From Hyalella azteca (Eukaryota; Arthropoda; Malacostraca; Amphipoda; Hyalellidae): a stretch of 64,000 bases of DNA. Under the pieces are notes generated by a model. The model was not told the origin of the DNA. It was given only the letters and a program-made list of their open reading frames with translations, and ran no database searches. Every line of letters starts with the position of its first letter. The first letter of the stretch is position 1. Below, one piece after another: positions 7,994 through 55,000 of the stretch. Made by a program: the position numbers and the translations under genes. The stretch is from contig NW_025941525.1 in assembly GCF_000764305.2 (NCBI RefSeq), forward strand, positions 1-64,000, given 5' to 3'.

Positions 7994-10900
7994 GCAAGTC
8001 TCATTTCTGCTAATTTTCTGTTTAGTATTTTCTCTTTGTTTTTAATGATAAAACACTTTGTACTGCTAGTTCTTGCTTGTTGATTTTTTGTGTGCATATT
8101 TTAAGTGGAAAGTTGCTTAACATTAATCATTTTTTTAGTTTAAATTGGGGAGTTGCTGATGGGAATTTTTTCTGCGCAGGATGTGACTCTAAGTGAACTT
8201 ATGGAAGAAGAAGAACTTCTTCAGGAATGTCAAGCTCAAAATAAGAAATTAGTTGATTTGTAAGTATATACCAAATATATCATTTATTTTTGAGTTTATT
8301 ATTTTTTGCTATATTTATCATGAGCTGTTGGAATGAATGTTACTCAATTGATAATTTTCAGGGAGCAAATTTGGTTTACCAACATTCAGTATTGAAAGTT
8401 TGATGTAATCCTGTATTGCTCAAGAAGGTGGTTATCATATGACATGGTACTTGTCAATTTATTGAATGAAACAGTATGCCAACTCATTTGTGTATGTTGA
8501 AACCAATAATTTTGAGAAACATTTGAAATCGAATGATTTGTTAAATCGAATGATGAAGAACCCTTCTAATGACCTGATCACTTCAAGAGATGCTGGAAAG
8601 AAAGGAAAAAACTGTAAATTTATAAAAATTGGAGCTTCAGCTGCATCATTAATTTATAAAACTTGATTACATTCTACACACTCAAGCTTAGTAAGTGTTT
8701 GGCATAGTGGCAGCCATGTCTGTTAGTTAAAAGTTAAGCTTTTTGTGCATCCTGTTTTATATGACACAACTGAACACATTTGGCTTTGCAAGTTTTGGAC
8801 ATGTCAATTTGCCAATTTCTCACATGCAATAGTTGATGGTGGTTTTCTCTGCAGTTTATACTTGGTTGCATTTCGGTTTTCAGCTGATCAATTTTTTATT
8901 TATTAATTCCATTCTTGGTTTATTTATTGAAAATTGTTATACTCTATCAATTATTATTCTCTCTTCACATTGTTGTATTGAAGGCACACAAGTGGTGAAA
9001 GTGTCGGCAGTAATTGATATTGTTTTCTCAGTCTCTTCACATTGTTGTATTGAAGGCACACAAGTGGTGAAAGTGTTGGCAGTAATTGATATTGTTTTCT
9101 CAGTCTCTTCACATTGTTGTAAAGAAGGCACACAAGTGGTGAAAGTGTCTGCTGTAATTGATATTGTTTTTTCAGTCTGTTGCAGGATCACATCCTGCAG
9201 GAGCTTGTCTTGCTGGTGGTGACGGAGCCAAGCAGCGACAGACCATATCAGGTTCGCTTCAAGCATGCCAGCATCGCTGCCGAGCTCCTCTCCGCTGAAG
9301 TGCCTGCTATTGTTGATAAGCTTGCTGCTTCTGAGAGCCTATTGGAGACGCTTTGCAAGTAAGTCCACGGAGTTCAGAATGTAATCTAGAGCAGTGGTTC
9401 CAAAACTTTTTCAGGCTGGCGCCCTCCTTGGCTCCCCTGTGAATCTCTAGCTCTCCCGTCGACAGACACGCATAAAAACAAACGCCTCTTTCTTGATATT
9501 TAGTATGCTGCAATTTTGAAAGAGAAAGGTTCAACACAGATCTTTCCACAGGCCCTAACAGATCATTCCATTGCCCACTTTGGGAACCACTGATCTAGAG
9601 GAACTGTTTCATTCATTAGCTTAATATTGCTTTACAATTTTAGTGCTCTTCTCGCCGCAAAAAAAGCCACCACTGTACTCAATACTCAATCCTCTTGTTT
9701 TAACTTCTAAAGATCCACACAAATAAATAATTATTCCAATAGCTCCTGTTTATGAGTCCACATATTTACACCACACCTAGAATGCTATTTTGCAGTGATG
9801 GTTGCTATGAATTTTTAAGAGTAAGTTTGCTGAGTTTTAGGTAGAAGGCTTTCTTTGCAGGGTAATTTATTGCTTCATTGTTTGAATAACTTTTTAAATT
9901 CAGAATTTTCATTGATGTTAAAAAAATCTCTCCTCTATCATCTGGCATGTTTTTATCAGTAGAACATCTTTAAAGCCTAAGTATCCTTTGAAATGACCAC
10001 AGAGATGTGAATTAATAAAAAGTATTAAGTATTCCATTTATTTAAGTCCATGAGATTTGTAAAATAGTTTATGAATTTCTGAAATAACTATGTGATTACT
10101 TATTCCCTGACACATTTGATTCAAGATTATGCTATTGTCGTGTGATTTTTGTGATGATGATCCTCACGTCATTGATATTTTCCTTGCAGTTTTTTGTCCA
10201 ATGAGAAGCCTCTGAACCCTTTGTTAGCCTCCTTCTTCTCCAAAGTTCTGGGGATGCTTTTGCACCGGCGCTCTGAACAGGTCAGATGTTGGGACAGGCT
10301 ATTGTTAATATTCTCAGTACTGATATCCTAAAATTTGTATCAGTGGTGTGCTGTGGATGAAAACTTGCCCACATTGACCACATTAGTAAGTAACAAATAT
10401 GCTGTAGATGTGATCTTCATCATAGTGTCTCCATCCATCACCTTAATTTTATGCATGGAAAACATGTCACTCTTGACTGAGCATATGAATCTTGCTGATA
10501 TTGTATGCTTACATTTCTCAGGCTCTAGTTGCAGTTCAAATTCACTCGTAGCTCTTTAGCGAGGCTGTTCATGGCAGCAGTGAGACCTAAAATGTCTGTA
10601 CCGTTTTCCCTTGGTTAGCTTTTGGTCGGCAATGTGAGTACTCTTAAAAATGTTGCTCAAGGTTTTTTTTAGTTCAATTGCGCAAATGTTATTTATAATT
10701 TCTGCTGCGTTTCATTCATCAAAAAATCGTTACCTATTAAGATTGTAGACAGGTGCTTTTACATCAATGCTGCCAATTTATAGTTTAAACAAGATAAGTT
10801 AAACTCAGTTGTAGTTGTTGTGTAAATCGCCTTTCATAATGTAAGCATAATTTAAGATTTTTTCTAGCCATCTTACATACAAAAAGTTACTCCTAAGAGT

Positions 10901-52020: not shown

Positions 52021-55000
52021 CTGCGGGAGGAAAGATTATTTCAGATTTTCTGGCATTGTGCGAATTGCGGAGAAATTGCGAGGCAACTCACATGGAACAG
52101 TAAGAATATGGAAAAAAATATAAAGCATTTCAGTTGTTGAAGTTTATTGTACTTCTGCGGCAACTATAACTATTTAATTATTTAATAAAGTTTTTAACAC
52201 AAGCTCTTCCCAGATAAGGGTAACTTCATGATAATGACACGAGTTGATCATAATCTATTTGGTTTGTACGATGGAATCAAGAAATCAAAATGAAATTTTT
52301 CACAGAACAATGGCTTTACTTAAGCAAGTCCAAAGGGAAAAGATATTACTATATACAGGACATTCAACACGTGAATTTTCTCTAAGGAACTATGACAAAT
52401 ATACCTTGAGCCACTTGTCGACACACTTGGAATGGAATTTATCATATCCAAAGAGCTAAGACCAAGATGCTCACCTTGAGCCACTTGTCGACACACTTGG
52501 AATATACGGTAATTCATCATATCCAAGGAACTAAGATCAAGATGCTCACCTTGAGCCACTTGTCGACACACTTGGAATGGAATTCATCATATCCAAGGAA
52601 CTAAGACCAATATGCTCACCTTGAGCCACTTGTCGACACACTTGGAATGGAATTCATCATATCCAAGGAACTAAGACCAAGATGCTCACCTTGAGCCACT
52701 TGTCGACACACTTGGAATGGAATTCGTGCAAGCAAGGCAAGACGCGCAGCATCTGGCGCACTTCGAAGTCGCACATGCACACGACGCACGTCGTCTGCTT
52801 GGTGTCGCATTTCTCTCCGGTGTACCTGCAAAACCGCGACTGTAAGTTCCAAACGTACCTAGTTGTACAAATGTGTTGTCCTGAAAATTTTATATCCTAT
52901 CCTACCTAACGTTTTACATTCAATCTCAGGCATATATATGTATATATATATATATATAACTGACTATGATGATAACTGTCCTCAAAGTAAAAAGATTCGT
53001 CTCGAATAACCTTAAATTCAGATGCAGAAACACGACACGATACCTTTTATAACATTGCATCACGAGCCAGTAGAGAGAGTACAACAACACCGCAGATATT
53101 GCAGAACAGTACTATAACATTAGGAAATGGGCTGACATTTGGTCCTGGCACGATATCTGGTTGCCACACAGTACCTGTATGAAGGGAGCTAGTCGCCACA
53201 CAGTACCTGTATGAAGGGAGCTGGTCGCCACACAGTACCTGTATGAAGGGAACGGGTCACCACACAGTACCTGTATGAAGGGAGCTGGTCGTCGCACAGT
53301 ACCTGTATGAAGGGAGCTGGTCGCCACACAGTACCTGTATGAAGAAAGCTTGTCGCCACACAGTACCTGTATGAAGGGAGCTGGTCGCCACACAGTACCT
53401 GTGTGAAGAAAGCTTGTCGCCACACAGTACCTGTATGAAGGGAGCTGGTCGCCACACAGTACCTGTATGAACGGAGCTGCTCGCCACACAGTACCTGTAT
53501 GAAGGGAGCTGGTCGATGGCATGGCGCATGAGGCCTCGTGGCTTAGCGTCTCCCAGACGCTCGGCGAGGTGCAGCAGAGCTTCGTAGTTCTCAGGGTCCT
53601 GCACCTCGGCTGACACTTGCTCCACGGCGCTCAGGGTGTGCAGGGCTGTCGGCTGACTCAACATCGCTCTGCTCAACGTCAATATTTTGTAAGTATAAAG
53701 CATCAACGATTATTCTGAATATTTTCTGCAACTTGAAGAAGGATCATAAAACACCATCCAATACTAAGCTTCCAATTCATCAAGGACACAAACGATGGTA
53801 AATGGATATGAGAATTGGACGAACGAAGCATCATATGTTCAAAGGAGCCTTGCGATGTCCACAGTAAACACATTTCACAGCAAAAGCATAGAATGACTGC
53901 TAGAATGATTTTCTAAAATAAATATGCCTCCTTGAATAGGAGGCATATTCCACTGTAGAAAAATCTTAGCAGCAGAAAGCAATATTTATAAGATATAAGT
54001 TATTATTTGCCAGGAATAAATTTGTGTCGGAGGGACGACTTATTTTGGTTTGCGTGACTCACAAGAAGTGCAGGAGGATCCCGGGGTAGGAGGCCGTGGC
54101 TGCAGCCACCGCTGCTGAGGCCTGTGCGGGACCGAGGGGACCGAGGGGAGGGCCCTGAGGGGGGCCTTGAGGGGCGTGACCTGCTGGCTGGGGAGGAAGG
54201 GGAACTCCACCCATGCCACCTCCTGCAAAGTAAATAATACGTTATCGTTGCGCTCAACGGTCCAACAGTGAATGATTCAACAGCGAACGATTCAACAGTG
54301 AATGATTCAACAGTGAATGATTCAACAGTGAATGATTCAACAGCGAACGATTCAACAGCGAATGATTCAACAGTGAATGATTCAACAGTGAATGATTCAA
54401 CAGTGAATGATTCAACAGTGAATGATTCAACAGTGAATGATTCAACAGTGAATGATTCAACGGTGAATGATTCAACAGCGAACGATTCAACAGTGAATGA
54501 TTCAACAGTGAATGATTCAACAGTGAATGATTCAACAGTGAATGATTCAACAGGTCCAGCAGTGAACTGTCACATGTGCAGACAGTCGATCACCAACACG
54601 ATGTTCACACTAGGGCAAAAGCAGGCAGAAGTGAATGGAAGAACGAAATCTTACCTTAAAACAACTGTTATCTGACGCAGCACCCATAACTAGAGCTTAT
54701 ATATTCACAGTTCTGTACAGCTCGACTTTATGTTATGTTATTACAACATTGCATTGTTAAAACCCATCAGGCAACGGAAGGCGTGTACAATGAAAATTTT
54801 AAGATTTCAACAAGCCTTTAATTGGGAACTAAATTATGGCACACGGAAAATATAAGACTACGCAGTAAAGAACAGAAATATATCTAGCCCACCACTCACC
54901 CGGCACGGCACCCGCCTAGCCCAACACTCACCCGGCACGGCACCCGCGGCCGCGACGACGGCAGCGGCGGCGGTCCGCCACCCGCCGCCCGCTCTCCTGG

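What the first reader, a model, noticed from the sequence alone, without database searches (positions are those of the whole stretch)
8960..54947. Tandem arrays anchored on splice junctions in two unrelated genes
Eight tandem arrays (3x72, 3x52, 7x62, 5x79 and 3x53 bp in PPP6R; 5x70, 11x32 and 2x32 bp in RNF38/44) each lie on an exon-intron boundary, and each unit carries a copy of the donor or acceptor. Six are on donors and two on acceptors. In every case the authentic site is the unit adjacent to the unique part of the exon, and the array grows into the intron. Apart from Gln/His codon runs, I saw no such array wholly inside an exon, and few within introns away from junctions. Unit lengths and sequences are unrelated, so this is not one repeat family spreading. 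It looks like a process that repeatedly duplicates splice-site DNA. Tandem duplication of AGGT-bearing exon segments is a known proposed route to intron gain, but multi-copy splice-site arrays at this density are not something I recognise.
Basis: partly seen in the sequence, partly recalled or inferred. Interest (0 to 1): 0.88.

Follow-up and report, generated by a model that had tools for sequence, protein, structure and literature searches.

The report
Splice-junction minisatellites in an amphipod genome
In the small freshwater crustacean Hyalella azteca, short stretches of DNA that straddle exon-intron borders have been copied in tandem, as is known from lancelets, and they turn up in several unrelated genes, probably because splicing can hide the extra copies inside introns.

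Summary
The window is Hyalella azteca (amphipod): my PPP6R model matches the NCBI protein over 1228 of 1228 residues, which fixes its splice sites. All eight arrays lie on junctions (6 donors, 2 acceptors) and the units carry the site. Of 11 strong arrays in the two genes 8 cross a junction, against about 1 expected at random and 2.9 with GC matching. Around 60 kinase and 23 myosin exons chosen without sight of repeats, 12 of 27 strong arrays cross an exon edge, against 4.5 expected (6.4 GC-matched, P=0.008). The same structures are known in amphioxus as "mirages". Best reading: general, GC-biased minisatellite birth in a repeat-rich genome; copies straddling a border survive because splicing uses the site next to the unique exon. 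A splice-directed process is not shown. New member of a known kind.

The parts
7931..30464 (+). PPP6R (SAPS-domain) gene, 20 coding exons, 19 introns; host of arrays 1-5
   Evidence: spliced translation equals NCBI H. azteca protein P0001, 1228/1228 aa; Pfam SAPS
8960..9178 (+). Array 1, 72 bp x 3.0, acceptor of exon 9176-9358; units end in a copy of the 3' splice site
11514..11671 (+). Array 2, 52 bp x 3.0, donor of exon 11365-11535; donor 9-mer identical in 3 of 3 units
11793..12197 (+). Array 3, 62 bp x 6.5, acceptor of exon 12177-12433; exon copy differs from the intronic consensus mainly at third codon positions
15009..15403 (+). Array 4, 79 bp x 5.0, donor of exon 14913-15062; 54 bp of coding sequence in the unit, donor 9-mer identical in 5 of 5
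17976..18135 (+). Array 5, 53 bp x 3.0, donor of exon 17854-17980
51951..59454 (-). RNF38/44-like RING E3 ligase gene, 8 modelled exons (5' end not modelled); host of arrays 6-8
   Evidence: tblastn with Panulirus and Meganyctiphanes proteins, Pfam RING, canonical splice sites
52403..52725 (-). Array 6, 70 bp x 4.5, donor of exon 52825-52690 (part of the RING coding sequence repeated); last unit's intron part diverged
53157..53515 (-). Array 7, 32 bp x 11.2, donor of exon 53668-53495; donor 9-mer identical in 11 of 11 units
54884..54947 (-). Array 8, 32 bp x 2.0, donor of exon 55022-54932 (exon uncertain)
54263..54553 (-). 15 bp x 19.4 array in an RNF intron, 41 bp from an acceptor; does not carry it (counter-example)
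55033..55230 (-). 17 bp x 11.6 array, 11 bp upstream of the modelled acceptor; does not carry it (counter-example)

Best explanation
These are junction-spanning minisatellites of the kind called mirages in amphioxus, here in Hyalella azteca. A short DNA segment (about 20-150 bp) that happened to include an exon-intron border was tandemly duplicated, then expanded and was homogenised like any minisatellite. The genome makes such arrays at a high rate, preferentially from GC-rich DNA. Copies wholly inside exons alter the protein and are lost; copies that straddle a border are hidden, because the splicing machinery pairs the sites nearest to the unique exon body (first donor, last acceptor; exon definition) and discards the extra units with the intron, which grows. 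Shown: positions, authentic site in PPP6R, recurrence in other genes, GC bias, edge units left out of homogenisation in arrays 3 and 6. Inferred: loss of exonic arrays by selection, exon definition as the choosing rule, slippage or unequal exchange as the copier.
For: Arrays and junctions. Other genes: 12 of 120 kinase edges carry a crossing or exactly abutting array (11 by TRF; one added by inspection; at two of them, L039 and the 3' edge of L059, the splice site itself is unclear) and 2 of 46 myosin edges a strong one; 12 of 27 strong arrays cross an edge against 4.48 expected, P=0.0002. GC bias: array junctions are GC-richer than others (0.53 v 0.46, P=0.03, n=8 v 44; 0.517 v 0.417, P=0.04, n=13 v 153; the exon side alone is not significant, P=0.15). 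Exact triples are 11.2% of singles for CAGGTGAGT (492, 4404) and 5.7% for its reversed control (158, 2766), but 0.74% for AAGGTAAGT (27, 3635) and 0.74% for its control (81, 10896): composition dominates, on two word pairs. Abundance: about 12 strong arrays per 64 kb in the next 200 kb of the contig. No established conservation of decoy donors: 8 variable columns in the donor cores of 10 arrays against 13.6 expected, P=0.07. 28 of 31 decoy sites would give a premature stop. Concerted evolution sparing the edges: array 3 exon differs from the intronic consensus at 7 of 30 bases, 5 of them third positions, while the intronic copies agree closely.
Against: After GC matching an excess remains (8 v 2.88, P=0.0003, window, post hoc; 12 v 6.35, P=0.008, independent sample), which composition alone does not explain. 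Donor cores look less variable than the rest of the unit by a plain Fisher test (8/281 v 84/1243, P=0.012, 9 arrays). With whole array lengths thrown the kinase sample has no excess (10 observed, 13.5 expected). No RNA reads were available to show which sites are used, and loss of arrays from exons was not measured.
Confidence: 0.6

Rival explanations
1. A process tied to splicing or transcription (R-loops, nicks, RNA-templated repair) duplicates splice-site DNA specifically.
For: An excess at junctions remains after GC matching; CAGGTGAGT triples are twice as frequent relative to singles as the reversed word; GAGGTGAGT triples 333 against 154 for the reversed word, not normalised.
Against: The junction sits anywhere in the unit (exonic part 3, 22, 21, 54, 5, 36, 21, 16 bp), so breaks are not at the splice site; AAGGTAAGT shows no enrichment; strong arrays off junctions are about as common (8 of 16 in the window; 15 of 27 in the sample).
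Confidence: 0.13
2. The extra donors and acceptors are kept by selection, as redundancy that strengthens exon recognition or as decoys that tune expression through nonsense-mediated decay.
For: Donor 9-mers identical in 11 of 11, 5 of 5 and 3 of 3 units of arrays 7, 4, 2; array donors have a lower median score than others (5.7 v 7.7), though P=0.20; 28 of 31 decoys would truncate the protein.
Against: Pooled over 10 donor arrays the core is not significantly conserved (P=0.06-0.07); L061 and L066 hold mutated decoy donors; the 44 other junctions of the same genes do without arrays.
Confidence: 0.12
3. Assembly artefact: false or miscounted tandem copies.
For: That this is a short-read draft is recalled, not checked; single ambiguous bases lie in arrays L049 and L066; in amphioxus, draft assemblies miscounted such arrays (BflGb6 aberrantly assembled, PMC3087553; PGBD5 with 2 or 7 and 3 or 6 copies in two versions, PMC3902484), so copy numbers here may be wrong.
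Against: Units differ from each other by substitutions; the only N of the window is at 37138, far from the arrays; no reason for false copies to sit on splice sites; for amphioxus PGBD5 resequencing upheld the repeats (PMC3902484, passage).
Confidence: 0.05
4. The arrays are intermediates of intron gain: an inner exonic copy can later be recruited as an exon, turning units into a new intron (model of the amphioxus globin paper).
For: Units carry exon ends with donor-like sites; PMC3087553 proposes this route (passage). Intron 5 of PPP6R is already 81% array DNA.
Against: The eight window arrays extend existing introns; no new intron position was looked for in other species. Of 44 array-free junctions only the one beside the 17-bp array resembles its intron beyond the 99% level.
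Confidence: 0.1

Closest known systems
Amphioxus 'mirages' (Branchiostoma Adh3, globins BflGb6 and BflGb9, troponin C, PGBD5)
   Same: Minisatellite-like tandem duplications spanning exon-intron boundaries, at both 5' and 3' sites; units 10-160 bp, many carrying AG/GT signals; splicing said to be undisturbed; concerted evolution with the edge units left out (passages)
   Different: Arthropod, not cephalochordate; here counted on exons chosen without sight of repeats; length polymorphism and RNA use not shown here. The founding paper (Nucleic Acids Res 2002) is not held and is known only through its citations.
Internal tandem repeats at exon-intron boundaries of human genes in segmental duplications (PMC2812944)
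   Same: Minisatellites of about 30-bp units, some at exon-intron boundaries and lengthening introns (passages)
   Different: 27 intron modifications in recent human paralogues, most with an alternative transcript that keeps the repeat; here conserved genes and many unrelated units
[quoted passage not shown] potato RdRp, ATP2A1, fission yeast cases; PMC4974935)
   Same: Tandem duplication of DNA bearing splice signals, mRNA unchanged (passages)
   Different: There a new intron arises; here an existing intron is extended

Membership tests
Mirages (junction-spanning minisatellites) | Tandem repeat units spanning an exon-intron boundary | tested here: met
   8 of 8 window arrays (one on an uncertain exon); 12 of 120 kinase and 2 of 46 myosin edges
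Mirages (junction-spanning minisatellites) | Both 5' and 3' boundaries affected | tested here: met
   6 donors and 2 acceptors in the window; both kinds in kinases
Mirages (junction-spanning minisatellites) | Regular mRNA splicing undisturbed | tested here: inconclusive
   the NCBI protein uses the site next to the unique exon at all 5 PPP6R arrays, but its RNA support was not seen
Mirages (junction-spanning minisatellites) | Concerted evolution inside the array, edges excluded | tested here: met
   seen in 2 of 8 arrays (3 and 6): inner units alike, an edge unit diverged; the other six are too uniform or too short to tell
Mirages (junction-spanning minisatellites) | Length polymorphism, somatic instability | not testable with these tools
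   one assembly only
Introner elements (features recalled) | One sequence family dispersed as introns | tested here: not met
   28 pairs of the eight units compared, lowest P 0.01, as expected by chance for 28
Rogers AGGT intron gain | Exonic duplication creates a new intron position | not tested
   arrays lie at the ends of introns between single-copy exons; intron positions were not compared with other species

The most novel reading that the evidence does not exclude
In this amphipod roughly one splice junction in twelve (14 of 166 sampled edges) carries a tandem array of itself, so junction duplication is a genome-wide engine of intron growth; the excess left after GC matching would mean that something about exon-intron borders, not only base composition, seeds the duplications.
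Probability: 0.3. Interest if true: 0.75.

Novelty: new member of a known kind. Interest (0 to 1): 0.55.

Why it matters
In the papers I could see, mirages are described in amphioxus. Finding them in an amphipod, in unrelated conserved genes and around exons chosen without sight of repeats, gives a second animal in which to study them. It makes three questions testable: how spliceosomes choose one of up to eleven near-identical sites, how much introns grow by this route (81% of PPP6R intron 5 is array), and whether such arrays feed intron gain. It also warns annotators and short-read mappers that exon ends in this species may be multi-copy.

Tried and rejected
Degraded arrays at array-free junctions: 44 junctions compared with 1365 random intron points; two exceed the 95% level and one, beside the 17-bp array, the 99% level. 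Weak donors as the cause: array donors not significantly weaker (P=0.20). Selection on decoy donors: P=0.012 by plain Fisher test, 0.06-0.07 by permutation; not accepted. Donor motif in array consensus units as a test: insensitive, it does not separate even the window's own arrays from random DNA (P=0.14; next 200 kb P=0.06). Genome-wide donor words: CAGGTGAGT enriched (its listing shows a dispersed 21-bp family that inflates it), AAGGTAAGT not; GAGGTGAGT triples 333 against 154 for the reversed word, but its single count did not complete. H. azteca's own RNF protein was not among the hits, so exon 55022-54932 stays uncertain. Literature: ten searches of an open-licence library; in the listings (titles and starts of abstracts) I saw no report of such arrays in a crustacean. 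In the text of the Daphnia tandem-repeat survey PMC3152781 the words splice, exon-intron and intron-exon do not occur, and the passages seen of the Platorchestia genome paper PMC7831040 do not mention them. The library lacks most subscription papers. A 25-residue insert in the Trinorchestia longiramus protein exactly at the array-5 junction (read by eye) is a lead only; no DNA of that species was at hand.
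Full report
What the window is. A spliced 11-exon model of the plus-strand gene, built from the DNA before any protein was seen, is identical over 716 of 716 residues to a protein that NCBI lists for Hyalella azteca (P0001). Nine more exons were then fitted to that protein, giving 20 exons and 1228 of 1228 residues with GT/GC-AG borders. 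It has the SAPS domain of PP6 regulatory subunits. The minus-strand gene encodes a RING protein close to RNF38/44 of Panulirus and Meganyctiphanes; eight exons were modelled, the exon 55022-54932 being the weakest. The window is G000:C3131:1-64000 of a 519-Mb assembly.

The observation. TRF confirms the eight arrays, and all eight contain a modelled junction: six donors, two acceptors. The exonic part of the unit is 3, 22, 21, 54, 5, 36, 21 and 16 bp for arrays 1 to 8: the border lies anywhere within the unit. The donor 9-mer is identical in 3 of 3, 5 of 5 and 11 of 11 units of arrays 2, 4 and 7. In PPP6R the site used by the NCBI protein is the one next to the unique exon in 5 of 5 cases. The eight units are not one family (28 pairs, none beyond chance).

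Is it chance? In the two gene spans 8 of 11 strong arrays cross a junction. If a unit-length stretch is thrown at random outside exons 1.03 are expected and none of 20,000 trials reached 8; if whole arrays are thrown 3.77 are expected, P=0.008. I hold the unit null to be right, because an array grows by adding DNA and does not reach over a border that its first unit did not contain; this is an argument, not a test. With units matched for GC 2.88 are expected, P=0.0003. These numbers are post hoc for a window chosen for the pattern.

Independent sample. Kinase exons (PF00069, 138 rows) were chosen without any view of repeats: 60 exons, 120 edges, 49,386 bp. TRF arrays of score 113 or more cross 11 edges, and inspection adds one array that ends exactly at an acceptor (L075): 12 of 120. 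At two of these (L039, and the 3' edge of L059) the splice site itself is unclear. Elsewhere the units carry it, for instance L061, where the end of the exon and GTGAGTG recur about nine times, and L053, L075, L081 on acceptors. Four myosin gene pieces (23 exons, 46 edges; 4 of the 12 stretches first asked for) have two strong and one weak junction array, all in one gene (L092); the other three genes have none. Together 12 of 27 strong arrays cross an edge against 4.48 expected, P=0.0002; in the later pooled version 4.78 (P=0.0008), GC-matched 6.35 (P=0.008). With whole array lengths the kinase sample alone shows no excess (10 observed, 13.5 expected).

Composition or splice sites? Junctions with arrays are GC-richer than those without, in the window (0.53 v 0.46, P=0.03) and in the sample (0.517 v 0.417, P=0.04; intron side 0.425 v 0.325, P=0.002; exon side 0.55 v 0.50, P=0.15). 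Genome-wide, three exact copies of CAGGTGAGT with gaps of 10-40 occur 492 times for 4404 single copies, the reversed word 158 times for 2766; AAGGTAAGT 27 for 3635, its reversed word 81 for 10896, the same 0.74%. On these two word pairs the GC-richer words are about ten times more often in arrays whether or not they are splice sites, and the splice word adds a factor of two in one case (inflated by a dispersed 21-bp family seen in the listing) and nothing in the other. A third word, GAGGTGAGT, has 333 triples against 154 but no single count.

History. Arrays look of different ages. In array 3 the exon differs from the intronic consensus at 7 of its first 30 bases, 5 of them third codon positions, while the intronic copies agree with each other: an old duplication with continuing turnover that spares the edge. 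In array 6 the intron part of the last unit has diverged while the exon parts are nearly identical, apart from the start of unit 4. Arrays 4, 5 and 8 are more uniform. Seven introns contain 7 to 81% junction-array DNA, 7.6% of all intron bases of the two gene models.

Consequences for splicing. Donor arrays offer up to eleven near-identical sites. 28 of 31 decoys tested would cause a premature stop, so they should be mostly unused, or used for decay. First donor and last acceptor are both what exon definition (shortest exon) predicts; this is inference. Conservation of decoy donors is not established (P=0.07; but Fisher P=0.012).

Known kind. [quoted passage not shown] PMC3902484 adds PGBD5, where two assembly versions differ in copy number, and cites troponin C. 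The Hyalella arrays meet the features that could be tested. They are therefore a new member of a known kind, in another phylum.

What remains open. The excess left after GC matching, the lack of RNA and long-read evidence, the uneven spread between genes, and the state in other amphipods.

Noticed in passing
window 37139-37762 and 41251-41874: Two 624-bp direct repeats, 100% identical, 4112 bp apart; could be the long terminal repeats of a recent insertion or an assembly duplication, since the window's only N is at 37138.
   Followed up: no
window 9383-9600: Interspersed repeat: this intron stretch matches at least 39 other places of the genome at 81-89% identity (capped list).
   Followed up: no
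window 7993: The first PPP6R intron uses a GC donor (GAG|GCAAGT) according to the NCBI protein.
   Followed up: no
G000:C181, C190, C563, C619, C767, C819, C1164: A dispersed tandem family with unit near CAGGTGAGTGGTTAGTGCCCC recurs on these contigs (first 100 places listed).
   Followed up: no
protein P0002 (Trinorchestia longiramus): 25-residue insert exactly at the exon junction that carries array 5 in Hyalella; may be a gene-model read-through of a donor (by eye).
   Followed up: partly
protein P0001: A source names this PPP6R orthologue 'flocculation protein FLO11', a misleading name.
   Followed up: no
window 34355-35440, minus: Uninterrupted rhomboid-domain reading frame of 362 codons; the likeness to PARL is recalled.
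   Followed up: no
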